NCBI RefSeq assembly: GCF_009765865.1
Contig: NZ_LMUQ01000052.1
Coordinates: 18,095-75,471 of the forward strand
DNA length: 57,377 nucleotides
Direction: 5' to 3'
Source: Acidisoma sp. L85
GTDB lineage: Bacteria; Pseudomonadota; Alphaproteobacteria; Acetobacterales; Acetobacteraceae
This document shows positions 25,157 to 43,131 of this stretch, in pieces. The notes below the pieces were generated by a model, which did not search any database, was not told the origin of the DNA, and saw only the letters and a program-made list of their open reading frames with translations. Made by a program: the position numbers and the translations under genes. Positions within the stretch are counted from its first letter, which is position 1; every line of letters starts with the position of its first letter.

Positions 25157-25243
25157 TCCGCCGGACACGCGGCAGTCTTTGAGGGCCTGCAATCTTCGAG
25201 CGCTGGGCGTGATGATCTAATACTGAACTGTGGTCTAAAGCTC

Positions 25244-25342
25244 CGTCATGGCGCGCGAAGGCGTGCCATCCACGCCTTCTTCGTCTCGCAAGCAAAGGCG
25301 TGGATGCTCGGCCGCGGGCGCCCGCCTTCGCCGAGCATGACG
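25244..25342 (+). repeat. Cloverleaf palindromic repeat, copy A
   Basis: The core begins CGTCATG and ends CATGACG (closing stem) and contains three hairpin arms. Arm 1 is GGCGCGC/GCGTGCC (one G-T pair). Arm 2 is CCACGCCTT/AAGGCGTGG. Arm 3 is GCTCGGC/GCCGAGC, enlarged by a nested 12-bp palindrome at 25314-25325. Homology with copy B extends outwards: an 18-bp identical block lies at 25205-25222 and AAGACATCC at 25369-25377. The copy sits between convergent tetR and doxX. Confidence 0.88.
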
Positions 25343-25416
25343 TGGTGGAGTAAGCACGGTTCGAATCGAAGACATCCTCGCCCGAGCCACCGAACTTCAA
25401 AAGGTCGTCCGCCGCC

Positions 25417-25842
25417 TCAGGCTAGTCTGAGAGCCGCATCGACGGAGTATCTACCGGCGCCGCTGACATACAGCACGAAAAGGCCGCCTATGATGCTGAC
25501 GTTTTTGTAGAAATTGATCATGCTCTCGATATGCTCCGGTCCCGTCACCGACCAGTAGTGGTGACCGATGAGTGCTGTGCCGAGTGTGTAGAGCGCCATT
25601 AGAAGCGCCAAGGGTCGCGTCAGAAAGCCGATGATGATCGCTAACGCGACGAAGACCTCCATGATGACCGCAATTGCCGTGGCGAGAACGGGCATCGGCG
25701 TGCCGATATGCGCGAAATAGCCCTCGGTTCCGCTGAAATTCATCAACTTTCCCCATCCGAAGATGAGAAAGAGTGCCATCAAAAGAATCCGCCCCACGAG
25801 AAGAACTTCGTTTCGAACTTTACTCGCGCCAAAATCATTCAT
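25417..25842 (-). CDS. DoxX family membrane protein (141 aa)
   Basis: A small inner-membrane protein with four predicted helices, including LLVGRILLMALFLIFGWGKL and IAVIMEVFVALAIIIGFLTR, and the conserved DoxX pattern (FGWGKL, the Glu-containing second helix, and the HHYW region before the last helix). Members are linked to quinone or redox functions and stress, but the exact role of this one is unknown. The ATG at 25842 has a GAGGG ribosome site; upstream in-frame residues look non-coding. It ends facing copy A of the palindromic repeat. Confidence 0.85.
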   Translation of the reverse strand: MNDFGASKVRNEVLLVGRILLMALFLIFGWGKLMNFSGTEGYFAHIGTPMPVLATAIAVIMEVFVALAIIIGFLTRPLALLMALYTLGTALIGHHYWSVTGPEHIESMINFYKNVSIIGGLFVLYVSGAGRYSVDAALRLA

Positions 25843-26255
25843 CACGTTGATACCCTCATCATTTGAAATCCTTCGCGCCGAACGCGTTGGTATGCATGAC
25901 GACATTCCTCCGCGCGAAGCTGGGAGCACCAACGTCGACGAGAATGATCGTCTGTATCTTTCTATCGGCCATTCAAGCGAATCCGCCTGGCCCGACTCGC
26001 CAGTTGTTGGGCGGCAAATCTAGCCTCCAATGCCAACGGCTGCCAGTCTTTCTCGTTCGCCCGTAAAGCCGGCCTGTCGGTCTGTCTGTCCGGGCGAAAC
26101 GGCCGGCTTCTGATCTTCCTGCACTCCAGAGACAGGTTTCGAGTGAAGTTCCTGCAAGGAATTTGTCCCTCGCCTAGCCCGGCTTTTCGTGCGACGACTG
26201 GTACTTGAGCGATTCGCTTCTGGACGGCCAACATAAATTGCGGGGAAACCGAGGA
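25843..26255. promoter_or_regulatory. Divergent intergenic region between doxX and the TPR lipoprotein
   Basis: This region of about 410 bases separates two diverging genes and must hold both promoters, but no clear -35/-10 pair stands out. No convincing gene was found in it. It contains the crossed pair of inverted repeats listed separately at 26055-26109. Confidence 0.4.
26055..26109 (+). other. Crossed inverted repeats with pseudoknot-like potential
   Basis: TTCGCCCG (26056-26063) can pair with CGGGCGAA (26091-26098). AAGCCGGCC (26066-26074) can pair with GGCCGGCTT (26101-26109). The two perfect stems (8 and 9 bp) cross, giving an H-type pseudoknot topology or two alternative hairpins. 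They lie about 150 nt upstream of the TPR lipoprotein start, so a structured 5' leader is possible. Confidence 0.4.
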
Positions 26256-26603
26256 ATGCGCGACAAGTGGATGCTGTTAATTGCGCTGGCCACAATGGCC
26301 GGCCTCAGCAGTTGCGCGGCGCCTCCCGCCAATCAGCTCGCATCTGGCTGCCCCTATTCGGGGGCGGATCAACCCACTCTCAGCCAACGCATGGCCCTTG
26401 ACTGCGAGGGGAAATACTACCTGAAAAAGGGAAAGTACGACCACGCGATCAAGAATTTCGACGAGGCGATACGGATCGATCCGACCCACGCGCAGACTTA
26501 TTATAACCGAAGCCTAACATATCGCGCTCTCGGCGAAACGGCCGATGCCGATGCGGATCTGGCGAAGGCGCGCCAGCTCGATCCGTCCATTCCTCAGAAT
26601 TAG
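26256..26603 (+). CDS. Small TPR-repeat lipoprotein (115 aa)
   Basis: It has a lipoprotein signal peptide (MRDKWMLLIALATMAGLSSC, with lipobox LSSC), so it should be lipidated and anchored to the outer or inner membrane. The rest carries about two TPR units (YLKKGKYDHAIKNFDEAIRI and YYNRSLTYRALGETADADAD), a protein-interaction fold. The ATG at 26256 is chosen because it gives a proper signal peptide; a TTG at 26205 is an alternative. The TAG stop touches the left flank of repeat copy B. The specific role is unknown. Confidence 0.82.
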   Translation: MRDKWMLLIALATMAGLSSCAAPPANQLASGCPYSGADQPTLSQRMALDCEGKYYLKKGKYDHAIKNFDEAIRIDPTHAQTYYNRSLTYRALGETADADADLAKARQLDPSIPQN

Positions 26604-26639
26604 GGCGTGATGATCTAATAGAACGGCGCCCCAGAGATC

Positions 26640-26727
26640 CGTCATGGCACGCGAAGGCGTGCCATCCACGTCTTGCCTTAGTGAAGCAAGCAAAGACGCG
26701 GATGCCCGGCCTTCGCCGAGCATGACG
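26640..26727 (+). repeat. Cloverleaf palindromic repeat, copy B
   Basis: Same plan as copy A: closing stem CGTCATG/CATGACG, arm 1 GGCACGC/GCGTGCC, arm 2 CCACGTCTT/AAGACGCGG and arm 3 GCCCGGC/GCCGAGC (one mismatch). Relative to the other copies, arm 2 carries a paired change (CGCC/GGCG to CGTC/GACG), which keeps the stem. The identical 18-bp left flank lies at 26603-26620. It sits between the convergent TPR lipoprotein and Kef antiporter genes. Confidence 0.9.
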
Positions 26728-26819
26728 TGGCGGAATGACTAGGTTTCTACCCAAGACATCCCGGTCTGGATGTCGGAAACTCACGCTCCTAGCGATCGCC
26801 CTGCCTGTCAGTCGATCGT

Positions 26820-28583
26820 TCAGGCTCGTGCCTCGCGATCCGCTTCAAAAAGTTCCGACAGCTCTTGCGCTGCCTGCTGTGTGCTCTGGATCAGTTGCTT
26901 TTCGTCGCCAGCAATAGCCTGCGTCTCGAACATGCTGCGCTCGTCGTGTTCGCGGAAGAACTCCACCGCGCGCTGGGCGGCTTGCGGCGGAATATCGAGC
27001 GCCTCCAGAACCATCTCGCTGAGGCGCAGGCTGGAGAAAAACGTTTCGCGGATGATGCCGGCAATGCCCATCTCCATCAATCGATAGGCGTGGCGTCGAT
27101 TGCGGGCGCGGGCGAAAATCGCCAAGTGATCAAAATGGCGCTTGGCGATTTCGACGACACGCAGCGTTTCCTCCATATCATCGAGGGCGACTACCAATAC
27201 GCTGGCCGTCTCCGCACCCGCGGCGCGTAAGACTTCCTCGCGCGTGGGATCGCCAAAATAGACTTTGGTGCCGAATCGCCGCACGACACTAACCTGCGCC
27301 GCATCCTTGTCTAGCGCGGTGAAGGCGATGTTTTGCATGCGGAGCACCCGGCCGACTACCTGCCCGACGCGGCCAAATCCGCAGATGATCACCGGCGCTG
27401 AGGATGCGTCGATCCGGTCATAGACTGGCTCTGGGCGCCGATCGAAGCGTGGCATCGCCAGCCGCTCCGAAGCCGCGAAAAGAATCGGCGTGACTACCAT
27501 CGAAAGCGCGACAACGAGCGTTGCCAGATCAGCCTGATCGCGTGACAGCGATCCGGCGGCCACAGCCGCGCCGAACAGCACGAAGCTGAATTCGCTCCCC
27601 TCGGGCAGAGCCAGGCTGAAACGCAGGGAACTCTTAAGGCTGCCACGTTTCACAAGCCCGAGCAGGAAGGTGACCGCGATCTTGACCGCCACCATCACGG
27701 CCAGGGCGGCGGCGACCATCCCGGGATGCTCGATCGCCAGATGAAGATTGGCGGACATGCCGACCGAGATGAAAAAGAAGCCGAGCAGCAGGCCCTCGAA
27801 GGGTTCGATATTGGCCTGAAGTTCGTGCCGGTATTCGGAGTCCGACAGCAATACGCCGGCCATAAACGCGCCCAGCGACATCGAAAGCCCGGCCCAATTC
27901 GCCAAGGCCGCCGTTCCGGCGACGAGCAACAGTGCTGTCGCGGTAAAAACCTCGGGTGTCTTGGCGCCGCCCATGAACCGGAAGACCGGACGGACGAGGA
28001 AACTGCCGCCGACCAGGATGATGGCGATGACCGCAACCGCGCGGCCTACTTCCAGCCACGAGACATGGGCAGGGACATTGCCGCCGGCTAGCAACGGAAC
28101 CAGCGCGACCAGAGGAATGAAAACCATGTCCTGGAACAACAGAACCGCGAAGCTGTCGCGCCCGGCAGTGGAGGAGAGCAGCTTCCGCTCCCCCAGCATC
28201 GGCAGGACGATGGCGGTCGAGGACAAAGCCAATCCTGCCGCAAGCACAATGGCGCCTGTCCAAGGCACCCCGGCCCAATGGACCAAACCCGCCAGCAGCA
28301 AGGTGGTCGGAATCATCTGACCCAGCCCGAGACCGAGAACGGCCTTGCGGAGGATCCAGAGCCGATGCGGTCGTAGTTCGAGGCCGATCAGGAACAGCAG
28401 CATAACCACGCCGAGTTCGGCGACGGTGCCGATCTGGCCCACATTGGTCACGAGCTGGAGTCCAGCCGGGCCGATGATGATTCCGGCGATCAGGTAGCCA
28501 AGAATACTGCCGAGACCGAGCTTGCGGGTGATGGGAACCGCGATGGCCGTCGCCGCCAAAAGTGCCACCAGCGTTCCGAGCAT
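26820..28583 (-). CDS. Kef-type cation:proton antiporter (CPA2) with NAD-binding domain
   Basis: A 587-aa inner-membrane antiporter for K+ (or Na+) in exchange for protons. About twelve hydrophobic segments fill residues 1-380, including the CPA2 patterns LGYLIAGIIIGPAGL and LGAFMAGVLLSDSEYRHEL. A Rossmann TrkA-N domain follows from about 395 (PVIICGFGRVGQVVGRVLRM) and runs to about 520, where residues near LVVALDDMEE and IFARARNRRH are conserved. This is the KefB/KefC-like domain order; whether it is glutathione-gated cannot be told. The start ATG 28583 has a GAGGAGG ribosome site. Transcription ends towards repeat copy B. Confidence 0.9.
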   Translation of the reverse strand: MLGTLVALLAATAIAVPITRKLGLGSILGYLIAGIIIGPAGLQLVTNVGQIGTVAELGVVMLLFLIGLELRPHRLWILRKAVLGLGLGQMIPTTLLLAGLVHWAGVPWTGAIVLAAGLALSSTAIVLPMLGERKLLSSTAGRDSFAVLLFQDMVFIPLVALVPLLAGGNVPAHVSWLEVGRAVAVIAIILVGGSFLVRPVFRFMGGAKTPEVFTATALLLVAGTAALANWAGLSMSLGAFMAGVLLSDSEYRHELQANIEPFEGLLLGFFFISVGMSANLHLAIEHPGMVAAALAVMVAVKIAVTFLLGLVKRGSLKSSLRFSLALPEGSEFSFVLFGAAVAAGSLSRDQADLATLVVALSMVVTPILFAASERLAMPRFDRRPEPVYDRIDASSAPVIICGFGRVGQVVGRVLRMQNIAFTALDKDAAQVSVVRRFGTKVYFGDPTREEVLRAAGAETASVLVVALDDMEETLRVVEIAKRHFDHLAIFARARNRRHAYRLMEMGIAGIIRETFFSSLRLSEMVLEALDIPPQAAQRAVEFFREHDERSMFETQAIAGDEKQLIQSTQQAAQELSELFEADREARA

Positions 28584-28690
28584 CTCGCCTCCTCATGCCC
28601 ACGAGGCGGGCTGCTAAAGCGCGATGCCTATACCGGCCGAGCGCTCAGCCTTGTAAGGCGCAACAATAGCAGCCGTCAGTCGTCAAAGCT

Positions 28691-28822
28691 TCAGCCTCTA
28701 TGGGCAGGCAGGCGGAAGAACTCGGCAATCGGCTCAGCGAGCAGCCGCCAAAAGCGCAGTCCGCCCCGGCGTGCTTGGCGCGCGACAGAACTAAGTGTGG
28801 TGCTCTTGTTATTCGTCATCAT
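28691..28822 (-). CDS. Small Arg-rich peptide (43 aa)
   Basis: A short frame starts at ATG 28822 directly after an excellent AGGAGATC ribosome site and encodes 43 residues. It begins MMTNNKSTTLSSVARQARRG and then continues with a basic/aromatic segment (LRFWRLLAEPIAEFFRLP). It lies 66 bp after the DUF1127 gene on the same strand and is probably co-transcribed with it. I know no named family; the basic, Trp-containing character is reminiscent of small DUF1127-like peptides. The ribosome site and downstream position are the main support. Confidence 0.5.
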   Translation of the reverse strand: MMTNNKSTTLSSVARQARRGGLRFWRLLAEPIAEFFRLPAHRG

Positions 28823-28888
28823 GATCTCCTGAGAGGTTTTGGAAACCCATCGAAGCGGATGAACTCCAAGATCGATCGGGCGTGGAAT

Positions 28889-29137
28889 TTACCGGCGATA
28901 GGTGCCGGCGGCGATCGAAGGCAGGTCGCCACGGCTGAAGCCCAGTTCGGCGAGCTCACGGTCCGTGAAACTGGCCAGTTCGCGAGCCTGCTGCCGGAAC
29001 TCGCGCAACTCCTCGCGGCGCGTGACAATGTTCGTCATGGCGGCTCTAACGCTACGGCTCATAGAGGCGAAGCCAAGAAAATCGACCGCGATGGGCGATT
29101 TAGGCGCTACGCGGACTAAGCTTTCAAAGGTCTGCAT
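28889..29137 (-). CDS. DUF1127 domain small protein (82 aa)
   Basis: The C-terminal half (REELREFRQQARELASFTDR, then ELAELGFSRGDLPSIA) is a clear DUF1127 (YjiS-like) motif. In alphaproteobacteria, small DUF1127 proteins have been linked to RNA metabolism and phosphate or carbon homeostasis, but this one is longer at its N-terminus and its role is unknown. ATG 29137 is chosen for its GGAG ribosome site; ATG 29062 or TTG 29164 are alternatives. It is followed by the 43-aa peptide gene. Confidence 0.8.
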   Translation of the reverse strand: MQTFESLVRVAPKSPIAVDFLGFASMSRSVRAAMTNIVTRREELREFRQQARELASFTDRELAELGFSRGDLPSIAAGTYRR

Positions 29138-29368
29138 ATCAGGGTACTCCGGTTGATGTTGCAATGCAGCATAACCCTCCGGAGGCCGCTTGTCTACTTT
29201 AAAGCGAACTCAAGTCGCTATAACGATGTCGCGAGCCTGCTCTGCTTCCTGCGAGTGACCGAGCGATGTGATCTGGTTCGGAAGCATCAGCTTCGGGGGC
29301 TGGGCAAACCCATCACCACCCGGCCCTCCAGGACCGGGACCGCGCGCGTCGAGGCCGCACGCGCCGGG

Positions 29369-29863
29369 CTACGCGCTCCGAAGCGGCTCCGCATTGCCGA
29401 GATCTCGGCGCATCAGGGTGACGCATACCCCCGCATCGACTTCCCGCCCCGCTTCGATCCAGCCGAGTCGCGCGTAGAGGCGCTTCTCTGATGCGGTGAA
29501 GAGCCAGAGGGTTGGGATGGCGGCTGTTCTGGCCGCTGCCTCGACCGCCGCCACCAGCGAGGCCGCGTAGCCACGGCCGCGATGAGGGGGCGCCACATAA
29601 ACGCTCGCGAGCCATGGGGTCAGGTCCGGACGCGCGGGCAAATCCTTGTGCACGAGGCTCGCCGTGCCTGCGGGCTCCTTACCCACCAGCAGCACGAAGA
29701 CCTGCTCAGGCCCTACGGCTGCTACCTGGGAGGAGACACGCGCCAGCGCCGCGGCCGCAGTCTCCTCGTCCGGGAATGCGAGGGTCTGCCAAGCCGCGAC
29801 CACCGTCGCCAGATCAGGCCGTTCCGCCAAGGTGACGATGCGGACAGCCGGACCAGTCGTCAC
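29369..29863 (-). CDS. GNAT-family N-acetyltransferase (164 aa)
   Basis: The acetyl-CoA site motif VYVAPPHRGRGYAASLVAAV (about residue 90-110) and the C-terminal region LYARLGWIEAGRE are typical of GNAT enzymes. The target is unknown. The likely start is GTG 29863, which overlaps the otsA stop as GTGA, so it is translated in the otsA operon. A longer start at 29944 would extend into otsA and looks non-coding. Confidence 0.82.
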   Translation of the reverse strand: MTTGPAVRIVTLAERPDLATVVAAWQTLAFPDEETAAAALARVSSQVAAVGPEQVFVLLVGKEPAGTASLVHKDLPARPDLTPWLASVYVAPPHRGRGYAASLVAAVEAAARTAAIPTLWLFTASEKRLYARLGWIEAGREVDAGVCVTLMRRDLGNAEPLRSA

Positions 29864-31230
29864 GCGGGGCGGAGGGCCGCCAGGAAGGTCTCGGTGAAGC
29901 GCTCCGGAGTTCCAGCCCATACTTTGTCGCGCAAAGCATGCCATCGCTCCTTGCGCTCGCCAAGTTCCATGTTGAGCGCCTGATCGATGGCTTCCGCGAC
30001 GCCATCGGCATCGAAGGGATTGACCAGCAGGGCCTCGCCCAGCTCATGCGCCGCGCCGGCGAATTGCGACAGGATCAGCACGCCGGGATCGGCGCTCGAC
30101 TGCGCCGCGACGAACTCCTTGGCGACCAGATTCATGCCGTCGCGCAGCGGCGTCACCAGCCCGATCTGCGCCATCCGGTAAAACCCCGCCAAGGTGGTGC
30201 GGTTCATCGCGCGGGTCATGTAGCGGATAGGGGTCCAGTCGAACTCCGAGAAGCGGCCGTTGATGTCGCCCACAAGCCGGTCAAGGTCGCGGCGGAGTTG
30301 CTTATATTGGTCGACATCCTCGCGCGAAGTCGCGGCGACCTGCATCATCAGGACGTGGCGGCGATGGGCGGGGAAACGATCGAGCAGTCGCGCGAAGGCC
30401 CGAAAACGTTGAGGCAAGCCCTTGGAATAATCCAGGCGGTCGGCACCGATCACCAGCTTGCGCTCGAACAGACTCTCGCGCATCCGCTTCACTTTGGTGC
30501 CGCGCACCGATCGCGCGGCGGCTGCCGCGAATTCCTCAGCGTCGATCCCGATGGGATCCACGACCACCTGCACGCGCCGCCCCTCGAAGACAAAATTGCC
30601 GTCCTTATCAGCGCTAACGCCGAGGAAGACATGGACGCATTCGAGGAAAGCCTTCTTGTGGTCCTCGGTGTGAAATCCGACCACGTCATAGGCGCAGATG
30701 CCGGCAATGAACTCCCGCGCGCGCGGCATGATGGCGAGCATGGCCGGCGGCACGAAAGGAATATGCAGGAAGAATCCGATGCGATGTCCCGCGCCATGCG
30801 CCCGCAACGCGGCGCCGAGCGGAAACAGGTGATAGTCATGCACCCAAACCAGATCGTCATCCTTCAGCAGCGGCAGGAGCGACTCGGCGAAGCGGTTGTT
30901 GACCGCCGCATAACCCTCCTCCTCCTCGCGCTTGAACTCGAACAATCCCATGCGGAAATGCAGCAGAGGCCATAGCGCGCCGTTCGAGAATCCGACGTAA
31001 AAATCATCGTACTCGCGCTCGGTGAGGTCGATCGTCGCGTAAGTAACGCCCTGAGCCTCATGGAGCGCGGGCTTGGCGCCCTCCTCAACATGGCCGCGCT
31101 TGCCGCTCCAGCCGAACCACATGGTGCCGGGGACGAGGCCGCTGCCCAGCGCCACCGCCAAACCACCCGCGCGAGGATTTTTCTCGTGCGGGATCTGAAC
31201 GCGGTTTGAAACGATTACGAGGCGAGCCAT
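29860..31230 (-). CDS. otsA: Trehalose-6-phosphate synthase OtsA
   Basis: This GT20 enzyme makes trehalose-6-phosphate from UDP-glucose and glucose-6-phosphate. The protein (456 aa) has the family hallmarks: [10 protein letters not shown] and the Gly-rich RAGGLAVAL at the N-terminus, [40 protein letters not shown] and [20 protein letters not shown] 31230 has a GGAAGGAAA ribosome site; upstream in-frame codons look non-coding. It follows otsB with a 99-bp gap, so the unit is otsB-otsA-GNAT. Together with TreS this gives the cell two routes touching trehalose. Confidence 0.95.
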
Positions 31231-31329
31231 AGCATTTCCTTCCTGCTTCGCGACGAGCCCGTCACGCAGCGGATTAGCCCGACCCGGAGACAGGTCCGCG
31301 GGGCGTAGCCGATCGGCACGTTGTCGCAA

Positions 31330-32064
31330 TCAGCCACGCGTCATGCCACGGGCCAGCGCCGCCGTCATCTCGCCCAGCCATTGCCGCACCTGGGCGGGAC
31401 CGCCGTCAAAGTCCCGCGCCACATGCAACCCATAGCCGCCGAGCTCGGCGGCCGCCGCCATTCCTTCCTCGTCGGTCACATCATCACCGATGAAAACCGG
31501 AACGCGGCCGGCGAAAGGCGCGATGCGCATCAGCCGCTGCACCGCCGGCCCTTTGCCGACGCCCGCCGGCCGCACCTCATAGGCCATGAGCGCCGTGAGG
31601 ATCTCGACCTCGCCCGGGGAACTCGCGACCAGCCGGGTCAGGCTTGCCAGGACCTCCGGTCCCGCCTCGGGCGCCTGGCGGTAATGCACCACGAAGCCGA
31701 CACTCTTTTCCTCGATATGAGCACCCGGCCAGCGCGGCAGCTCGGCCCGCAGGGAGGCGAGCCAGGCCTCGCGCTTCGGCAGCCGCCCGGCGGCCTCTTC
31801 AAGCGTTCCATCCGGCAGGCGGATGCGGGCGCCATGCTCGGCCGCGTAGACCAGTCCCGGCAGGGGGAGAAACGCCTCGATGTCCCGCGCGGGCCGCCCG
31901 CTTACCACGGCGAGCGCGCCACCGCAGAGAACCCGCAGGCGATCCACCAGCCCCGGCAATTCAGGCGGTATCACCACGAGATCGTGCCGGGGCGCGATGT
32001 CGATGAGAGTGCCATCCAGATCGAGGAATAAAGCGGTATCGGGCGCCAGATCGGTCGGTGTCAT
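31330..32064 (-). CDS. otsB: Trehalose-6-phosphate phosphatase OtsB
   Basis: A 244-aa HAD-superfamily phosphatase that releases trehalose from trehalose-6-phosphate. HAD motif I is FLDLDGTLIDIAP, motif II is AVVSGRPARD, and motif IV is VFIGDDVTDEEGM, with the conserved Lys in KGPAVQRL. It is the first gene of the otsBA unit. The start at 32064 has a GGACGAAGA ribosome site. Confidence 0.94.
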   Translation of the reverse strand: MTPTDLAPDTALFLDLDGTLIDIAPRHDLVVIPPELPGLVDRLRVLCGGALAVVSGRPARDIEAFLPLPGLVYAAEHGARIRLPDGTLEEAAGRLPKREAWLASLRAELPRWPGAHIEEKSVGFVVHYRQAPEAGPEVLASLTRLVASSPGEVEILTALMAYEVRPAGVGKGPAVQRLMRIAPFAGRVPVFIGDDVTDEEGMAAAAELGGYGLHVARDFDGGPAQVRQWLGEMTAALARGMTRG

Positions 32065-32153
32065 TCTTCGTCCGCAGCTAGAAACCCACCCTTAAATAGA
32101 GCAGTGGCGAGGGAGCGCCAGGGTGAGAGAGGCGCGGAGGCACCGGCGACACC

Positions 32154-32585
32154 TCAATCGCCTGCGCGAAAGGCATCGGCCACCTGTCGCAAGGCGCCGC
32201 CCGCACCGACCAGCCACAGATCGAAACGGACGCCGGCGCGGCCCCAGCCCGGATGGGCGCCGAGCAGGATTTCGGCGGCACCAATCAGCCTCGCGCGCTG
32301 CGATGGCCCCAGAGCGTAGGCGGCGACATCAAGCGCCATCCGCGACTTGACCTCGATAATGCTGAGTATCCCGTCCTTCTCGGCCGCGATGTCGATTTCA
32401 CCCGCTTCCGTCCGCAGCCGGCGGCCGAGAATGACCCAGCCAGCGGCGAACAGCGTCTCCACGACGAGATTTTCGGCGGCCACGCCATTCCGTTGCGCGG
32501 TGCGGCCACGCGCCACACGCGGCCCGAGCACCGGCGAGGGGGTCGCCGCCATGCGAGTGGCTTTCCGAATCCGCGTGGTGCTCAT
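32154..32585 (-). CDS. yraN: YraN/UPF0102 family endonuclease-like protein
   Basis: A small protein (143 aa, or 132 aa from ATG 32552) with the PD-(D/E)xK-like core of the UPF0102 family: EAGEIDIAAEKDGILSIIEV followed by KSR. The Asp and ExK residues are present. Family members resemble Holliday junction resolvases, but their biological role is poorly defined. The gene lies divergent from the next plus-strand gene and 89 bp upstream of otsB on the same strand. Confidence 0.85.
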   Translation of the reverse strand: MSTTRIRKATRMAATPSPVLGPRVARGRTAQRNGVAAENLVVETLFAAGWVILGRRLRTEAGEIDIAAEKDGILSIIEVKSRMALDVAAYALGPSQRARLIGAAEILLGAHPGWGRAGVRFDLWLVGAGGALRQVADAFRAGD

Positions 32586-32720
32586 GGCTCATATTCATTA
32601 CGATATTACAACGTAAAGCAAGACGTAGCTTCGGGTGCCGAGGCAACGGCATGCTGCCACCCCTTGCGCTGGGTGCGGGGGCAACGGAGAAGACGAGGGC
32701 GACAGGGGGTAGATTCGCAA

Positions 32721-34550: not shown

Positions 34551-34610
34551 AGACGCTTTGGTAGCGGTTGGTTTCCTCGGGCGCCTCCGTTTACGGCCCA
34601 CGCGCCATCT

Positions 34611-34697
34611 CGTCATGGCACGCGAAGACGTGCCATCCACGCCTTGCCTGTATCACGCAAGCAAGGCGTGGACGCTCGGCCTTCGCCGAGCATGACG
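34611..34697 (+). repeat. Cloverleaf palindromic repeat, copy C
   Basis: The cleanest copy, 87 bp. Closing stem CGTCATG/CATGACG; arm 1 GGCACG/CGTGCC; arm 2 CCACGCCTTGC/GCAAGGCGTGG (11 bp, perfect); arm 3 GCTCGGC/GCCGAGC with a CTTC loop (perfect). It lies in the 219-bp gap between the convergent 609-aa protein and flavin reductase genes. Confidence 0.92.
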
Positions 34698-34769
34698 GTA
34701 GCGGGTGGAGAGATGTTCGAGATTTGGCCTTGAGATTGGCCCGCGCGTTCGGGCCCTTGCGTATTCGCC

Positions 34770-35432
34770 CTAAAGGCTCGCTTCCGCTGCCCGGCGTAGC
34801 AACCGCCGCAAAAGGTTGGCCTCGTGGTCCGTAAGACCCGCCAGTATCTCCGCCTCCGCCTTGCGCTGAACGCGGGCTAAAAGCTCGCCCAGGGACGCAT
34901 CCTCGGGAACCGCCCCGCCGACAGCGGGCTCGTTCCGGACGAACATGCCGTAACCGCCGCTATGGAAGGCGAGCGGCGCGTGGCCGTCATGGTCGAATTC
35001 CTCGACCTCGCCGACGATGATGTAGTGGTCGCCTGCTTCGTGGCGAAAGGCGGTGCGGCACTGGAAGCGCGCGGCTGCGCCCACCAGCAGCGGCACTTCG
35101 GAAATCCCGCGCTCGATCGCCACGCCCGCGAATTTGTCGGTGCCTTGGCGCGCGAATTTGCCCGACAGTTTCTCCTGATCCATCGCCAGCACATGCACGG
35201 CGAAACGCTCAGCCTGCATGAAGGAGTCGAGGTTGGTCGAGTTCTTGCCAATGCTCCACAGGATCATCGGCGGATCGAGCGAGACGGAGTTGAAGCTGTT
35301 CGCCGTCATGCCGACATCCGCGCCGCCGACATCACGCGTCGTGATGACGGTGACACCGGTCGCGAAAGCACCGAGCGCGTTGCGGAATTCTCGCGCGCGG
35401 TCCTGTACCTGAACTGGGAGAGCCTCGGCCAT
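34770..35432 (-). CDS. Flavin reductase family protein (220 aa)
   Basis: An FMN-binding flavin reductase-like (DIM6/NTAB) domain fills residues 10-170: FRNALGAFATGVTVIT, GMTANSFNSVSLDPPMILWS and AGDHYIIVGEVEEFDHDG. Relatives reduce FMN with NAD(P)H for a partner monooxygenase; the partner is not in this window. The C-terminal about 50 residues (ELLARVQRKAEAEI, GLTDHEANLLRRLLRRAAEA) are an extension that looks like the end of a MarR-type helix pair. The start ATG 35432 shares one base with the dxs stop (TGATG), so it is translationally coupled to dxs. Confidence 0.85.
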   Translation of the reverse strand: MAEALPVQVQDRAREFRNALGAFATGVTVITTRDVGGADVGMTANSFNSVSLDPPMILWSIGKNSTNLDSFMQAERFAVHVLAMDQEKLSGKFARQGTDKFAGVAIERGISEVPLLVGAAARFQCRTAFRHEAGDHYIIVGEVEEFDHDGHAPLAFHSGGYGMFVRNEPAVGGAVPEDASLGELLARVQRKAEAEILAGLTDHEANLLRRLLRRAAEASL

Positions 35433-37354
35433 CAAGCCCTCACGGCGGCACTTGCAGCGGAGACCCCCAGCGCAGAGAGCGCCGTCGCCACGATATCCTT
35501 GGGCGTGAGCCCAGCCTCGGCGAGCTGGCCGGCAGGGGTGTTGTGGTCGATCAGCTTGTCGGGGATGCACATCGGCCGCACCTTGATGCCGCTGTCGAGC
35601 AGCCCTGTGGTCGCCAACAGATACAACACTGCCGACCCAAAGCCGCCGGCCACATTGTCCTCGATGGTGATGAGAACCTCGTGGTGGCGGGCAAGCTGGG
35701 CGACCAGCGCGGTGTCGAGCGGCTTGGCGAAACGCGCATCGGCGACCGTGGTGCTGAGACCCCGCGCCGCCAATTCCTCGGCCGCCTTCAGCGCGTCATG
35801 CAGGCGCGGGCCAAGTGCCAGGATGGCGATCTTGGAACCCTCGCGGATGATGCGGCCGCGACCGATCTCCAAAGGCGTCCCGCGCTTGGGCAGCGTGAGC
35901 CCCAGGCCCTCGCCGCGCGGATAGCGGATTCCGCTCGGCCGGTCGTCGATCAAAGCCGAGGTCGCGACCATGTGCATCAGCTCGACTTCATCCGACGGCG
36001 CCATGATAACGAAGCGCGGCAGGCAGCCAAGGAAACACAGGTCGTAAACGCCGGCGTGCGTATGGCCATCGGCGCCGACCATACCGGCGCGATCCATGGC
36101 AAAGCGGACGGGCAGCGACTGGATCGCGACGTCATGCACTACCTGGTCATAGGCGCGCTGCAGGAAGGTCGAGTAGATCGCGACGAAGGGCTTCATCCCC
36201 TCGGTCGCCATACCAGCGGCGAAGGTCACGGCATGCTGCTCGGCGATACCGACGTCGAAGGTCCGGTCCGGAAACTTTTTGCCGAAGCTGTCGAGCCCGG
36301 TGCCGCTCGGCATGGCGGCGGTCACCGCGACGATCGTGGAATCCGCCTCGGCCTCGGCGATCAACGCGTTGGCGAAGACCTTGGTATAGCTCGGCGGTCC
36401 CGGCGGCGCCTTGGCGAGTTCCCCGGTGATGACATTGAAGCGGGTGACGCCGTGGTATTTGTCGGCCGAGGCCTCGGCAGGCGCATAGCCCTTGCCCTTC
36501 TGCGTCACGACATGGAGCAGCACCGGGCCGCCCTCATCAGCATCGCGCAGGTTGCGCAGCACCGGCAGGAGGTGATCGAGGTTATGCCCGTCGATCGGAC
36601 CGACGTAGTAGAAACCCATCTCCTCGAACAGCGTTCCGCCGGTCAGGATGCCGCGGGCATATTCCTCGGCCCGCTTCGCCGTCCGCTCGATCGAGCGCGG
36701 GAAGCGCTTGGCCATGCGGGCCGCGAGGTCGCGCAGGTTGAGGAAGGATTGCGAGGAGATCAGCCGCGACAGATAGGCGCTCATCGCGCCGACCGGCGGG
36801 GCGATCGACATGTCATTGTCGTTGAGGATGACGACAAGCCGACTCTTCATCGAGCCGGCATTGTTCATCGCCTCGTAGGCCATGCCCGCGCTCATCGCGC
36901 CGTCGCCGATCACGCAGATGACCTGCTGCTCGCGATTCTCGCCCTTGAGATCGCGGGCCACCGCCATGCCGAGGCCGGCGGAAATCGAAGTCGAGGAATG
37001 GGCAGCGCCGAAGGGGTCGTATTCGCTCTCGCTGCGGCGGGTGAAGCCCGAGAGGCCACCCGGCTGGCGCAGGGTGCGGATACGATCACGCCGGCCCGTC
37101 AGGATCTTATGCGGATAGGCCTGATGGCCGACATCCCAGATCAGCCGGTCGCTCGGCGTGTCGAAGACCGCGTGGATCGCGACGGTCAGCTCGATCACGC
37201 CCAAAGCGGCGCCGAGATGGCCCCCGGTCACGGAGACGGTATCGACAGTTTCGGCGCGTAATTCCTCCGCCAACTGAGCGAGTTGCTCACCTGAGAAGTT
37301 TCGCATGTCGGAAGGAACTGAAACGCGATCCAGCAGCGGTGTATGCGGGGGCAT
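35432..37354 (-). CDS. dxs: 1-deoxy-D-xylulose-5-phosphate synthase
   Basis: First enzyme of the MEP isoprenoid pathway: it condenses pyruvate and glyceraldehyde-3-phosphate with thiamine diphosphate. At 640 aa it is full length. It shows the early His motif [19 protein letters not shown], the ThDP motif [20 protein letters not shown], and the transketolase pyrimidine region [11 protein letters not shown] / [16 protein letters not shown], plus [23 protein letters not shown] 37354 has a GGAG site at a suitable distance; a TTG at 37363 overlapping the ispA stop is possible. It is the third gene of the xseB-ispA-dxs operon. Confidence 0.96.
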
Positions 37355-37359
37355 GGGCG

Positions 37360-38277
37360 TCAACTCCGTCTCGAGACCACGAAATCAGCCAAGGCGATCA
37401 GATGGATAGCGCGGTCGCCGAAGCCGGCCAGATGGCCGGCCGCTTGTTTGGCCAGCATCTCGGCATGAGTGCGGGCCTGCTCGATCCCCATGATGGAGAC
37501 CATGGTAGCCTTGCCGACGGCAGCATCCTTGCCGGCCGTCTTGCCGATGACCGCCTCGTCGCCTTCGGCGTCCAGGATGTCATCGGCGATCTGAAAGGCG
37601 GCCCCGAGATCGCGCCCATAAGCGGTGATCTGGTGGCGCTGCATCTGCTGCGCCCGCCCAAGGATAGCGCCAGCCTCGGCGCTGTATTGTATCAGCCGCC
37701 CAGTCTTGAGCGCCTGCAAACGCGTGACCTCGGGGGCCGTCAGCGCGCGGCCCTCGGAAAGCATGTCGATCATCTGGCCACCAACCATGCCTCGGCTACC
37801 TGCCGCGGCGCCCAAAGCCGCCACCAGCTCGATCCGAGCCGAGGGGTCGGAATGGGTGTCCTCATCGGCCAGAAGCTCGAAAGCCCGCGTCAGCAGCGCG
37901 TCGCCCGCCAGAATTGCGGTCGCCTCGTCGAAAGCCTTGTGGCAGCTCGGCCGGCCCCGCCGCAGGTCGTCGTCATCCATCGCCGGCAGGTCGTCATGCA
38001 CGAGGGAATAGGCGTGCAGCATCTCGACCGAAGCGGCAACGCGGGTCGCGCAGGCCTGCGAGACGGAGAACAGGCTCGCCACCTCCATCACCAGGAAGGC
38101 CCGCAGCCGCTTGCCGCCGCCGAGCACGGCATAGCGCATAGCCTCGATGAGCCGCTGCTCCTGCCCGTCCGGCAACGGCAGCAGCACGTCGAGTGCACGC
38201 TCGACCTCCTCCGCCCGGCCGCCGAGGACCTGCTGCAGACGGGACCCTTCGTCATTGGCGACGTGAGTTGTGCTCAT
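37360..38277 (-). CDS. ispA: Farnesyl diphosphate synthase (polyprenyl synthase)
   Basis: A 305-aa E-isoprenyl diphosphate synthase that makes geranyl/farnesyl diphosphate. Both Asp-rich motifs are present: [15 protein letters not shown] (first) and [13 protein letters not shown] (second). The sequence [15 protein letters not shown] is the substrate-binding Lys/Arg site. The start ATG 38277 is one base after the xseB stop (TGAGATG). It supplies the carrier-lipid and quinone precursors for which dxs feeds the start of the pathway. Confidence 0.93.
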
Positions 38278-38278
38278 C

Positions 38279-38557
38279 TCAGGCCACTGGCCGCGTGGTG
38301 AGGGTGCCGTCGGCCCGTTCGACGATCGCCTGGATGCGCAGCTCCGCATCGGCGAGCTTCGATTCGCAGTGACGGCGGAGCGCGCTACCACGCTCGAACG
38401 CGATGATCGCCTCCTCCAATTTCTGCTGGCCGCTCTCGAGTCCGCGCACGATACGCTCGAGTTCGGCCAGGGCCTCCTCGAAGGACAAGGCGGCAACATC
38501 GGCCAACACGCCAGGGGCGGCCCCGGTCACGGCTGGGGGTGCGGCGGAGGCGGACAT
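38279..38557 (-). CDS. xseB: Exodeoxyribonuclease VII small subunit
   Basis: A 92-aa protein with the XseB signature (SFEEALAELERIVRGLESGQ, then LEEAIIAFERGSALRRHCE). It is the small subunit of exonuclease VII; the large subunit (xseA) is not in the window. ATG 38557 has a GGGAAGG ribosome site. It heads the xseB-ispA-dxs-flavin reductase operon, an arrangement common in proteobacteria. Confidence 0.93.
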   Translation of the reverse strand: MSASAAPPAVTGAAPGVLADVAALSFEEALAELERIVRGLESGQQKLEEAIIAFERGSALRRHCESKLADAELRIQAIVERADGTLTTRPVA

Positions 38558-38691
38558 CAGCGGCCTTCCCGCCGCGAGTCCGGCATTAAGAGAAACATGA
38601 ACATTGTCGTAATCCTTTTGACAGATTCTCGCCAACCCCTGGAAGAGTTAGACGAGACTCGCCCTATCACGGGTCTGCTAGCCGTAAGCTT

Positions 38692-40092
<1,401 letters not shown>

Positions 40093-40093
40093 C

Positions 40094-40816
40094 CTAGACG
40101 CCCGGCTTCAGCACATAGCCGCGGCCGCGTACCGTGTGCAGGAAGCGGGGCTCGCGGGTGTCGACCTCGATCTTGCGGCGAAGGCGGGTCACCTGCACGT
40201 CGATCGCCCGTTCCCCCGGCTCATCCATTTCCAGCGCGGCGGCGATTTCCTCCCGCGACAGGATCTCGTTCGGCTTGGCGGCGAGCGCTGTCAGCAACGC
40301 CACCTCGCCGCCGGTCAGCCGAATGGGACCCTGCGGACCCCGCAGCTCGCCCCGCTTGGGATCGAACTCCTTGTCGCCGAGCCGCACCGCTGCGGCGTCG
40401 GTTCCGGCAACGGCGCCCAGCCCACCGGCCCGCCGCAAAAGCGCTCGGGCGCGCAATACCAGCTCGTACGGATCGAAGGGCTTGCCTAGATAGTCGTCGG
40501 CGCCCGATTCGAAGCCGGCGATACGATCCTCGGGCGCGCCGCGCGCCGTCAGCAGCAGCACCGGTAGCTCGGCATCGCCCCGCCGCCGCAGATCATCCAC
40601 CAGAGCGAGACCCGATTCACCCGGCATCGTGACGTCGAGGATCATCAGATCCGGGCGCAGCGAGCGCAGGTGATCGCGCGCCTCAGCCGCATCGGCGGCG
40701 GCGGTTACGCGAAACCCGTGATCGGAAAGATACCGCACCAGGAGCCGCCTCAGCCGCGCATCGTCATCGACGACAAGGAGATGGACGGGAAGCGTCGCTT
40801 CCTCGGCCGCGACCAT
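40094..40816 (-). CDS. ompR: OmpR-type response regulator
   Basis: A 240-aa transcription factor with a receiver domain (LLVVDDDARLRRLLVRYL, phosphorylated Asp in DLMILDVTMPG, Lys in YLGKPFDPYELVLRARALL). A winged-helix DNA-binding domain follows (LTGGEVALLTALAAKPNEI, and RAIDVQVTRLRRKIE, VRGRGYVL). The start ATG 40816 overlaps the MarR stop (TGATG). The gene lies second in the MarR-OmpR-EnvZ operon. The symbol is by type; targets are unknown. Confidence 0.92.
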   Translation of the reverse strand: MVAAEEATLPVHLLVVDDDARLRRLLVRYLSDHGFRVTAAADAAEARDHLRSLRPDLMILDVTMPGESGLALVDDLRRRGDAELPVLLLTARGAPEDRIAGFESGADDYLGKPFDPYELVLRARALLRRAGGLGAVAGTDAAAVRLGDKEFDPKRGELRGPQGPIRLTGGEVALLTALAAKPNEILSREEIAAALEMDEPGERAIDVQVTRLRRKIEVDTREPRFLHTVRGRGYVLKPGV

Positions 40817-41343
40817 CACGCGCTCCGCGCGCGCGGCTCCCGCGCCGGGGTTTCGACCAAGGCTGGTCCGGATTCCCCGGTCAGTGCGCGCAATACGCGG
40901 CGGAAGCCTTCCACCGCCGGGCCGCCGGCTTCGCGATAGGCGCGCATCAGCACGTCCCTCTGACGCTCGAACAACCGGCGCTCCAGCGCCTGGCCCTCGG
41001 CGGTGAGGCTGAGCAAGCGCTGGCGGCGATCCACCCGCCCCGGTGCCTGAACGACATAGCCTTCCTCGACCAGCGTCGTTAGAACACGCGAAAGGCTCTG
41101 CTTGGTAATGCCGAGGATGGCGAGGAGGTCGCTGACCGTGATACCCGGCGTGCGGCCGATGAAATGCAAGGCGCGGTGATGGGCGCGGCCGAGTTCGGAG
41201 CCTTCCAGCACCTCATCCGCCGCGCGAGTAAAGTCCCGGTAGGCGAAGAAGAGAAGATCCTGGGCGAGGCGAAGTTCCTCCTCCCGCAGGAACAGCAGGC
41301 CGGCACCTGCGGCAGGATGAGCGGGCTGGGGCATGGCTGGCAT
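40816..41343 (-). CDS. MarR-family transcriptional regulator
   Basis: A 175-aa winged-helix regulator: ALHFIGRTPGITVSDLLAIL, then GITKQSLSRVLTTLVEEGYV and the wing region RVDRRQRLLSLTAEGQAL. It leads the operon and overlaps ompR, so the three are co-translated. It is divergent from ilvE across a 93-bp gap with an imperfect palindrome 17 bp upstream of its start. It may therefore control both directions. Whether it regulates the two-component system is an inference from position. Confidence 0.9.
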   Translation of the reverse strand: MPAMPQPAHPAAGAGLLFLREEELRLAQDLLFFAYRDFTRAADEVLEGSELGRAHHRALHFIGRTPGITVSDLLAILGITKQSLSRVLTTLVEEGYVVQAPGRVDRRQRLLSLTAEGQALERRLFERQRDVLMRAYREAGGPAVEGFRRVLRALTGESGPALVETPAREPRARSA

Positions 41344-41360
41344 ACGGTCATTTTACGACA

Positions 41361-41380
41361 GCTTCGTTGACTTAACAAGC
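41361..41380. promoter_or_regulatory. Imperfect palindrome, candidate MarR operator
   Basis: GCTTcGTT-gactt-AACAAGC has half-sites GCTT(c)GTT and AACAAGC with one extra base. It lies in the divergent region between marR and ilvE and includes TTGACT, which could be a -35 element for ilvE on the plus strand. Confidence 0.4.
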
Positions 41381-41436
41381 GATTCGCCATTAGGTTTTGT
41401 CCATCCCAAGCAACAATATTGCGGAAGAACAGGGTT

Positions 41437-42336
41437 ATGGCGCTAGTTCCTTTCGACGACCGAGACGGCATGATCTGGTGGAACGGCGCGCTGCGCCCGT
41501 GGCGAGAAGGCAAGTTGCATGTCCTCACCCACGGCCTGCATTACGGCAGTGCCGTCTTCGAAGGTGAGCGCGCCTATGGCGGCAATATCTTCAAGCTCCG
41601 CGAACATAGCGAGCGGCTGAAGCGTTCCGCCGAAATTCTCGGCTACGAGATCCCCTATACGCTAGAGGAAATCGACGCCGCCTGCCAACAGACGCTCGTC
41701 GCCAACCACCTGACGGACGCCTATGTGCGGCCGATCGCCTGGCGCGGCTCGGAGCAGCTCGCGGTTTCCGCCAAGCTCACCACGATCAACCTCGCGGTGG
41801 CGGTCTGGGCCTGGCCGAACCTGTTCGGCAATGACCGCATGAAGGGCGTGCGCCTGGGCAATGCGACCTGGAAGCGCCCGCATCCCGAGACCGCGCCGAC
41901 CGCCTCGAAGGCCGCCGGCCTCTATATGATCGGCACCATGTCCAAGCATCAGGCCGAGGATGCGGGTTTCGACGATGCATTGATGGTCGACTGGCGCGGC
42001 CGCGTGGCCGAAGCGACGGGCGCCAATATCTTCTTCGTCATGGACGGCGCGCTGCATACCCCGACGCCCGACTGCTTCCTCGACGGCATCACCCGCCGGA
42101 CGGTGATGGGCCTGGCGCGCAAGCACCAGATCAAGGTGGTGGAGCGCGCGATCGAGCCCTTCGAAATCCCCAGCGCGACCGAGGTCTTCCTCGCGGGCAC
42201 GGCGGCCGAGGTCACCCCGGTGCGCCAGATCGACACGCATCACTTCACGCCGGGTCCGATCACCGAACGGCTGCTGCGCGATTACGAGGCGCTGGTGCAG
42301 CTACACCCAGACGAAGTCGCCGCACGCGCGGCGTAA
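41437..42336 (+). CDS. ilvE: Branched-chain amino acid aminotransferase
   Basis: A PLP fold-type IV transaminase (299 aa) for Leu, Ile and Val. It has the signature region VLTHGLHYGSAVFEGERAY, the PLP-lysine stretch ASKAAGLYMIGTMSKHQAE, and the conserved RVAEATGANIFFV and EVFLAGTAAEVTPVRQID. Start ATG 41437 has a GGAAG/AGGG ribosome region. It is divergent from the MarR operon and is followed closely by the truncated phosphatase gene, with which it may be co-transcribed. Confidence 0.95.
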   Translation: MALVPFDDRDGMIWWNGALRPWREGKLHVLTHGLHYGSAVFEGERAYGGNIFKLREHSERLKRSAEILGYEIPYTLEEIDAACQQTLVANHLTDAYVRPIAWRGSEQLAVSAKLTTINLAVAVWAWPNLFGNDRMKGVRLGNATWKRPHPETAPTASKAAGLYMIGTMSKHQAEDAGFDDALMVDWRGRVAEATGANIFFVMDGALHTPTPDCFLDGITRRTVMGLARKHQIKVVERAIEPFEIPSATEVFLAGTAAEVTPVRQIDTHHFTPGPITERLLRDYEALVQLHPDEVAARAA

Positions 42337-42452
42337 GTTTGGCTGAGGATGAAGGGCGCGGTGCCATAGGTGCCGCGCCCTTTTCAGCTATGGGCTTCGA
42401 TCCGGCGATTCTCGCCCGTCCGACGATGCCAATGGGCGGCATTGTCACCCGC

Positions 42453-42920
42453 ATGGTCGGCGGTCGCCGCATCGCCTTGGTCCGGCACCCGCCGCTGCTT
42501 GGCGGCAACGGTCTCTGCTACGGACGGTTGGATCTGCCCCTCGCCAATCCCGACATGGACATCCCCGACCTCGTGGCCCGGCTAGAACCAATGCGCGGCG
42601 CCACGATCTGGACCAGCCCGCTGTCTCGTTGCCGGTTAGTCGCGGAGGCTTTGGCTCTCGCTTGGGGTGGTGCGGCGGTGCGGGTAGACGCGCGGTTGAT
42701 GGAGATGAGTTTCGGCGAGTGGGAGGGAATGCGGTGGGATGAGGTGCCGCGCAACGAACTCGACGCCTGGGCTGCGGATGTCGTGGGTTTCGCGCCGCCG
42801 GGTGGGGAAAGTGGTGTTGCGTTGGTGGAGCGTGTGACGGAAGTTTGGGGAATCATCGAAAGCTGTGCGGGAAACCAAGTCGTGGTGAGCCACGGCGGAC
42901 CGCTTAAAGTCGTTGTGTAG
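42453..42920 (+). pseudogene. CobC-like histidine phosphatase, C-terminally truncated
   Basis: The N-terminus (RRIALVRHPP, then LCYGRLDLPL) is the RHP-type histidine phosphatase signature of CobC (alpha-ribazole phosphatase)-like proteins. The other catalytic residues are visible: SPLSRC (Arg), MSFGEWEGM (Glu) and SHGGP (second His). However, the frame stops 5 codons after SHGGP, where about 40 further residues are normal. The stop is followed at once by the flank of repeat copy D. The fold may still work, or it may be a decaying gene; I list it as a probable broken gene. ATG 42453 is the best start; earlier in-frame starts add non-conserved residues. Confidence 0.6.
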
Positions 42921-42959
42921 GGCGGAATGTCTTTGGTTTGAACCTTGCCCACTTGACCA

Positions 42960-43060
42960 CGTCTTGCTCGGCGAAGGCCGAGCATCCACGCCTTGCTTGC
43001 GTGACGAAAATAAGCCGTGGATGGCACGGGGTGCCCCGCACGCCTTCGCGTGCCGTGACG
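42960..43060 (-). repeat. Cloverleaf palindromic repeat, copy D (inverted)
   Basis: In reverse orientation to A-C. Core elements are recognisable: closing ends CGTCACG/CAAGACG (CGTC/GACG pairing retained), arm 2 with CAAGCAAGGCGTGG, and a perfect arm 3 GCTCGGC/GCCGAGC. Arm 1 (GGCACGCGAAGGCGTGC) is enlarged by a GGGGTGCCCC palindrome (43028-43037). Weaker flank similarity reaches about 42921 and 43098. It lies between the convergent histidine phosphatase and sugar ABC ATPase genes. Confidence 0.85.
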
Positions 43061-43131
43061 AGTGTTTGGATTGCGGTGCCAACTAAAGATATGACGCCTA
43101 AGACTTCGCCGTTCAGCCGCGTGCAGCCCCC

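What the first reader, a model, noticed from the sequence alone, without database searches (positions are those of the whole stretch)
25244..43060. Dispersed repeat that can fold as a three-armed cloverleaf, four copies
Copies lie at 25244-25342, 26640-26727, 34611-34697 and 42960-43060 (inverted). Each begins CGTCATG-like and ends CATGACG-like, so the ends pair, and each contains three hairpins in the same order (GGCACGC..., CCACGCC..., GCTCGGC...). Arm 2 shows compensatory change: CGCC/GGCG in A and C, CGTC/GACG in B. Covariation suggests the folded form, not just the sequence, is kept. No transposase is nearby. Other alphaproteobacterial genomes carry GTCATG-type palindromes, but I cannot say whether this family has been described.
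Basis: partly seen in the sequence, partly recalled or inferred. Interest (0 to 1): 0.85.

Follow-up and report, generated by a model that had tools for sequence, protein, structure and literature searches.

The report
CGTC-tagged palindromic repeat dimers
The four 'cloverleafs' are copies of a known kind of short bacterial repeat (two palindromes head to head), here usually wrapped in an extra pair of inverted ends and sitting just after genes; the kind is known, but this wrapped form and its presence in this bacterial family are not in the one survey found.

Summary
The interpretation needs changing. Each 'cloverleaf' is a head-to-head heterodimer of CGTC-tagged REPs (CGTC tag, 9-bp stem starting AT, 4-nt loop, CCA tail, spacer with complementary ends), a superfamily described in 2013 (PMC3733652). 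Three of the four copies are cores of a ~170-bp composite with imperfect inverted ends. In 31% of the genome 97 hits were found: 59 in convergent gaps, 36 tandem, none divergent, 2 inside genes. In 18 of 77 ends that face a gene's 3' end the element's terminal TAG is that gene's stop codon. No Y1/RAYT gene (PF01797) was found in the genome; in 60 family genomes dimers (8) and PF01797 (5) never co-occur. Composite copies radiate star-like; outer arms and spacer loop diverged 0.27 and 0.21 substitutions per site, the rest of the core 0.04. New here: host family Acetobacteraceae (reported to lack CGTC repeats), the composite, and that contrast in rates.

The parts
25244..25342 (+). copy A: CGTC-REP head-to-head dimer, arm 3 with an extended tip (99 bp)
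25204..25386 (+). copy A composite: outer inverted arms around the dimer (right end approximate)
   Evidence: HMM hit C73:43298-43472 = window 25204-25378
26640..26727 (+). copy B: dimer with compensatory T-A pair in the spacer stem (88 bp)
26600..26769 (+). copy B composite; its terminal TAG (26601-26603) is the stop codon of the ORF 26205-26603
34611..34697 (+). copy C: dimer core without recognisable outer arms (87 bp)
42960..43060 (-). copy D: dimer with an extra GGGGCACCCC hairpin (101 bp, four hairpins)
42917..43101 (-). copy D composite with outer arms
   Evidence: HMM hit C73:61011-61195 = window 42917-43101

Best explanation
The core is a head-to-head heterodimer of CGTC-tagged REPs. 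In this genome most near-whole copies (57 of 85 sampled) carry at least one arm of a ~170-bp non-autonomous, MITE-like composite whose imperfect inverted ends read about YTA|GAGCGKGATG...CATCMCGCTC|TAR. Shown: the structure, the covariation, the copy number, the composite, star-like radiation, location at gene 3' ends, and one filled/empty orthologous site. Inferred: copies were spread in trans by an enzyme that is not a resident Y1/RAYT transposase; it probably acted on the outer ends at TA-containing targets, and so landed often at TAG stop codons. Copies that survive are those downstream of genes, where both strands can be transcribed into the same stable hairpins; there they most likely act as passive or mildly useful 3'-end hairpins. 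The REP arms stay conserved while the rest of the element drifts because they are read by something: a transposase, a nucleic-acid-binding protein or RNA processing.
For: The text-defined CGTC-REP features are met. Pair counts: 96.0% of cells paired against 89.2% shuffled, 109 double-change cells against 18.6, 0 of 500 shuffles as high; in 52 dimers from other records 144 against 49.2. 97 hits in 1.99 Mb; of 85 near-whole cores 32 have both outer arms, 25 one, 28 none. Searching by outer arms first gives 89 arm hits (an element with two arms counts twice), of which 77 adjoin a core aligned over at least 78 nt, mean identity 93%, so core conservation is not an effect of searching by the core. 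Outer arms: mean pairwise distance 0.371 against 0.386 expected for a star. Placement 59 convergent, 36 tandem, 0 divergent, 2 inside genes; as distinct gaps 58, 35, 0. Terminal TAG equals the gene's stop exactly in 6 of 33 left and 12 of 44 right ends that face a gene's 3' end. No PF01797 in the own genome; 8 of 60 family genomes with dimers and 5 of the same 60 with PF01797 do not overlap. An insert of about 140 bases in G003 is absent between the same two genes of G000, the element supplying TAG where G000 has TGA.
Against: No mobilising enzyme was found: in 27 overlapping loci from IS5-type hits in the own genome no inverted pair of ends like TAGAGCGKGATG (2 mismatches allowed) was seen; other transposase families were not tested. 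Ends are blurred: TA just outside is present in only 13 of 36 left and 10 of 29 right ends, both in 2 of 14, so no clean target duplication is shown. One-sided stem changes are mostly mismatches (52 against 11 G.T in the three stems), which does not look like selection for pairing alone. Private (once-seen) changes are equally frequent in arms and outers (0.017-0.022), though I judge that measure saturated. Only one filled/empty pair was found, and its right outer arm looks truncated. Gene calls came from a home-made codon-bias caller.
Confidence: 0.75

Rival explanations
1. Classical REPIN: a dimer mobilised as single-stranded DNA by a RAYT (Y1 HUH) transposase that has since been lost from this genome.
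For: Head-to-head palindromes with an unpaired 4-base tag are the REPIN layout. RAYT-gene loss by deletion is mentioned for E. coli strains in PMC3733652, and early loss of a CGTC-specific enzyme is one of its two proposals.
Against: Tag is CGTC, not GTAG. 0 of 8 dimer-bearing family genomes have PF01797 at E 0.001. The 2013 survey found no CGTC unit flanking a tyrosine transposase gene.
Confidence: 0.12
2. The outer inverted repeat is an older, independent target palindrome, and REP dimers later inserted into its centre.
For: Outer arms are far more diverged (0.272) than the core (0.042). The 2013 paper reports REP dimers inside palindromes in Anabaena variabilis and Halothiobacillus neapolitanus. 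Some dimers in Defluviicoccus and Rhodopila globiformis sit in other inverted flanks.
Against: Empty outers are nearly absent: 1 candidate in 1.99 Mb, and it keeps GACG of the core, so it may be a deletion (the paper too found no empty ones in its two species). The spacer loop inside the core is almost as diverged as the outers (0.206). Sister species G003 has the dimer at the same point of a related outer (by eye).
Confidence: 0.2
3. The covariation arises by mutation, not selection: quasi-palindrome template switching or conversion between copies re-perfects the arms.
For: Arms differ as whole units between copies and genomes. Such correction is an established mutation mechanism (recalled). 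Within the 37 composite copies double changes are few (11 cells in the three stems).
Against: Unpaired loops (0.045) and tags (0.017) are as conserved as the stems (0.045), which pairing-directed correction alone would not give; conversion of whole arms is not excluded.
Confidence: 0.25
4. The repeat is a structured regulatory RNA or intrinsic terminator family selected at each site.
For: Intergenic copies lie downstream of genes; copy C folds well on both strands; arms are conserved in place under a near-star phylogeny.
Against: No Rfam family at gathering score in the window; around copies A and B only two weak snoRNA-family hits, E 0.36 and 0.88. No T-run terminator at copies A or B (C and D not scanned). 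Three of 4 other genomes of the genus have no hit with the full consensus, so it is dispensable.
Confidence: 0.15

Closest known systems
CGTC-tagged REP superfamily (Di Nocera, De Gregorio, Rocco 2013, PMC3733652; text parts 1-6 of 8 read, figures and supplements not seen)
   Same: CGTC tag, AT-starting 8-9 bp stem, 4-5 nt loop, CCA tail, head-to-head dimers, many heterodimers, spacers with complementary ends, convergent and tandem gaps, no dedicated transposase.
   Different: 9-bp stem with 4-nt loop matches none of the four families as worded (8/4, 8/5, 9/5, 9/5); the host family is among those listed as lacking these repeats; most copies lie in a ~170-bp composite.
Dimers inside palindromes: Halothiobacillus neapolitanus CGTC-1, Anabaena variabilis GTAG-15 (same paper)
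   Same: A REP dimer sits inside a longer inverted repeat; empty palindromes were not found there either.
   Different: Outer sequences differ (41 bp in all in H. neapolitanus); here the outer arms are 41-42 bp each, with TAG ends.
REPINs and RAYTs (Bertels and Rainey 2011, PMC3116915; seen as search listing with start of abstract only)
   Same: Inverted REP pair amplified within a genome (recalled).
   Different: CGTC tag; no Y1 transposase found in the genome.
MITEs of IS5-like elements (recalled)
   Same: Short, non-coding, inverted ends, partial TA-containing target preference, GAG termini as in an IS5-type element at C69.
   Different: No autonomous element with matching ends found; no clean target duplication.

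Membership tests
CGTC REP | CGTC at the unpaired end | tested here: met
   Tag identity to consensus 0.97 (5') and 0.99 (3') in 37 composite copies
CGTC REP | 8-9 bp stem with A-T pairs first and second | tested here: met
   ATGGCACGC/GCGTGCCAT and ATGCTCGGC/GCCGAGCAT; pairs 5-26, 6-25, 90-112, 91-111 formed in 68-70 of 70
CGTC REP | 4-5 nt loop and CCA-type tail | tested here: met
   GAAG/CTTC loops, CCA tail
CGTC REP | mostly head-to-head dimers | tested here: met
   86 of 97 sample hits have both tagged ends in inverted orientation 40-140 nt apart, one mismatch allowed; the search model was a dimer, so singles are under-counted
CGTC REP | belongs to one of families CGTC-1 to CGTC-4 | tested here: inconclusive
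   stem 9 with loop 4 fits none as worded; the consensus figure is not held
CGTC REP | no association with transposase genes | tested here: inconclusive
   no PF01797 in the own genome, no overlap in 60 genomes; other transposase classes not systematically tested
REPIN/RAYT (GTAG REP) | GTAG tag | tested here: not met
   CGTC
REPIN/RAYT (GTAG REP) | cognate RAYT in the genome or group | tested here: not met
MITE | terminal inverted repeats | tested here: met
   TAGAGCGTGATG.. against reverse complement TAGAGCGGGATG..; imperfect
MITE | target-site duplication | tested here: inconclusive
   YTA/TAR preference only partial; one empty site is compatible with 2-3 bp
MITE | autonomous relative with the same ends | tested here: inconclusive
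   none in 27 overlapping IS5-type loci and no lone outer arms around a coding element seen in the 31% sample; other IS families not tested
Rfam RNA family | gathering-score match | tested here: not met
   0 matches in the window

The most novel reading that the evidence does not exclude
REP arms at a hundred or more dispersed sites are held constant in place: in a star-like burst of a composite element the arms, loops, tags and spacer stem changed about 0.04 substitutions per site while outer arms and internal spacer loop of the same copies changed 0.27 and 0.21. This would mean that CGTC REP dimers are not just selfish debris but bidirectional 3'-end elements read by a sequence-specific cellular factor, delivered to stop codons by a separate, non-RAYT, MITE-type shell.
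Probability: 0.3. Interest if true: 0.65.

Novelty: new variant of a known kind. Interest (0 to 1): 0.42.

Why it matters
CGTC REPs were found in all orders of the alphaproteobacteria in the 2013 survey, yet what moves them is unknown; that paper ends on the question. A genome with many copies and no Y1 transposase found, a composite with definable ends, and outer sequence that can serve as a built-in clock make the questions of mobiliser and of in-place function directly testable.

Tried and rejected
Rejected: Rfam RNA. Intrinsic terminator at copies A and B (one weak site elsewhere; C and D not scanned). Resident RAYT. An IS5-type element as the composite's parent: one IS at C69 has CTAGAG... 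ends but no further clear match. Private-mutation counts were equal in all compartments (0.017-0.022); I set them aside because outer columns are saturated, but they do not favour my reading. One search crashed after its first line and was redone. A pattern scan of genome contigs with a longer exact pattern found 0. Empty sites at window copies: the flanks of copies A, B and D are not syntenic in the four other genomes of the genus; C was not tried.

Rows dropped: 11 of 97 hits without both tagged ends were left out of the core table. 55 cores of 80-92 nt and 15 copies from four other genomes (G003, G006, G014, G018) went into alignment A1; the other 31 of 86 bounded cores were left out. One A3 row (L198) is the same element as an A1 row (L079). 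In one search at most 74 candidates per genome were scored and both strands counted, so its counts are rough.
Full report
What is there. The four copies are real and are the only ones that a family profile finds in the window. The window lies in a 6.38-Mb draft genome. Its family is Acetobacteraceae by inference: same-family genomes G018 and G071 share DNA with public records titled Acetobacteraceae bacterium palsa_925 and Bin.031_Pasture, and G014 with one titled Rhodospirillales bacterium. The species itself was not named.

Copy number. The first look gave 235 candidates, of which 40 were scored and all matched. In 1,988,227 bases from seven contigs the profile gave 97 separate hits, 85 over at least 80 model positions. 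The two contig stretches taken first (800 kb) held 20 of these 85; the other contigs were chosen because they had hits. Extrapolated from the first stretches and from the whole sample, that is about 160 to 270 copies per genome (my arithmetic).

Structure. On 70 sequences (55 from this genome, 15 from four others) a fold of two 9-bp hairpins, a 9-bp spacer stem and a 4-bp tag pairing has 96.0% of cells paired and 14 of 31 pairs with double changes; none of 500 shuffles reaches this. On 52 dimers from public records with mostly alphaproteobacterial titles it has 94.8% and 18 of 31, again above all shuffles. Since ATG/CAT occurs at every junction, both forms could interconvert by branch migration (inference from the sequence).

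Identity. Each half is CGTC + AT-starting 9-bp stem + GAAG + CCA. This is the CGTC REP of PMC3733652. That paper also gives head-to-head heterodimers, complementary spacer ends, placement in convergent and tandem gaps, dimers inside palindromes in two species, and no dedicated transposase. It lists Acetobacteraceae among families that lack CGTC repeats. Here 8 of 60 sampled genomes of the family have the dimer, and model matches lie in records of Rhodopila globiformis and Acidisphaera sp. S103, both Acetobacteraceae. Eight searches of the held library found no later account of CGTC REPs or their mobiliser; only the 2013 paper was opened.

The composite. Flanks are conserved for 41-42 bases on each side: TAGAGCGTGATGATCTAATACTGAACCGCGACCCAAAGATC-[dimer]-TGGTGGAATGAGCACGGTTCAAACCAGAGACATCCCGCTCTA. 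Of 85 near-whole cores 32 have both arms, 13 the left, 12 the right, 28 neither. Among cores of 80-92 nt, those with an outer arm are uniform in arm type (26 of 33 GCACGC, 30 of 33 GCCGAG), core-only ones more mixed (9 of 22, 16 of 22). Sister species G003 carries the dimer at the same point of a related outer (by eye in about 7 of 20 fetched places); G001, G002 and G004 gave no match to the full consensus. In a Defluviicoccus genome 5 of 6 printed loci share flanking arms, both arms being clear in L266; in R. globiformis both printed loci have inverted flanks of another sequence. No shared flanks were evident in the printed loci of Acidisphaera S103 (4), Rhodopila 336R (2) and Rhodopila I3b (5) (by eye).

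Place in the genome. With home-made gene calls, 59 of 97 hits lie between convergent genes, 36 between tandem genes, none between divergent genes, 2 inside genes; of 705 gaps of at least 100 bases 117 are convergent, 375 tandem, 213 divergent. Counted as distinct gaps it is 58, 35 and 0. All four window copies are convergent. The chance of no divergent gap in 93 is of the order of 1e-15 under those proportions (my arithmetic, binomial). The terminal TAG is exactly the stop codon of the neighbour in 18 of 77 ends that face a gene's 3' end; of 28 stops within a few bases of it, 26 are TAG, against 408 of 1738 called genes.

A filled and an empty site. In G003 a dimer with a left outer arm lies directly behind a gene (CBS/CorC-like by eye, no family search run) whose reading frame ends ...ESAAAA at the element's TAG; in G000 the same gene ends ...EGAAAAA at TGA and the gap lacks about 140 bases. 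This is the one clear case in 19 G003 regions compared with 31% of G000 plus 30 element loci.

Rates. In 37 composite copies identity to consensus is 0.76 and 0.78 in the outer arms, 0.81 in the spacer loop, 0.93-0.99 in the other parts of the core; in 37 of 37 copies the core without the spacer loop is less diverged than the outers. Outers, loop and core are each close to a star (0.371 against 0.386, 0.323 against 0.317, 0.076 against 0.079). Searching by outer arms first still leads to near-whole cores in 77 of 89 arm hits; of the other 12, ten adjoin shortened or missing cores and two adjoin diverged ones (72-74% identity). So the arms are either constrained or homogenised in place, or younger; the near absence of empty outers and the diverged spacer loop speak against younger. 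Stem changes are not enriched for G.T, and loops and tags are as conserved as stems, which points to recognition of sequence as well as fold.

Who moves it. No PF01797 gene was found. Dimers and such genes exclude each other in 60 family genomes (8 and 5, overlap 0); about 0.7 overlaps would be expected by chance, so this is no correlation, only absence in each dimer-bearing genome. The conserved sequence ends at about YTA|G...C|TAR, as might be expected for a DDE transposase with TA-type targets (recalled), and an IS5-type element of this genome shows CTAGAG ends, but no parent was found.

Noticed in passing
G000 contig C83:191820-400000 and C73:99096-268329 (loci L040-L050, L055-L064): Two stretches of 208 kb and 169 kb have no hit, although the sample average is about one per 20 kb.
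   Followed up: partly
cores, e.g. L163:8160-8260, L053:3338-3436, L160:19572-19673: 23 of 86 bounded cores are 99-103 nt long; in those inspected a G/C-rich hairpin tip is inserted in arm 1, the spacer or arm 3, in either orientation.
   Followed up: partly
L136:5825-5873, L122:16668-16716, L152:8269-8317, L162:5078-5126: Four of 86 bounded cores are 49 bp, with the middle removed between AAGGCGTG direct repeats; recurrent slippage or a derived subfamily.
   Followed up: no
L266 and, with one arm each, L213, L229, L252, L259 (Defluviicoccus RHO2_bin_2); L275, L276 (Rhodopila globiformis): Dimers lie between other conserved or inverted flanks (TCCGTTTC type; GCGCTAAC type), so nesting recurs in some other genomes, though not in three others looked at.
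   Followed up: partly
window about 43270-43500: Part of the gene right of copy D has dozens of weak matches in each of four genomes of the genus, as a widespread domain would.
   Followed up: no
L296 (G000:C69 near 64400-65200): An IS5-type element with an open frame of 273 aa has CTAGAGCCTGTTATGTACTTT / CTAGAGAGTGTCATGCACCTT ends.
   Followed up: partly
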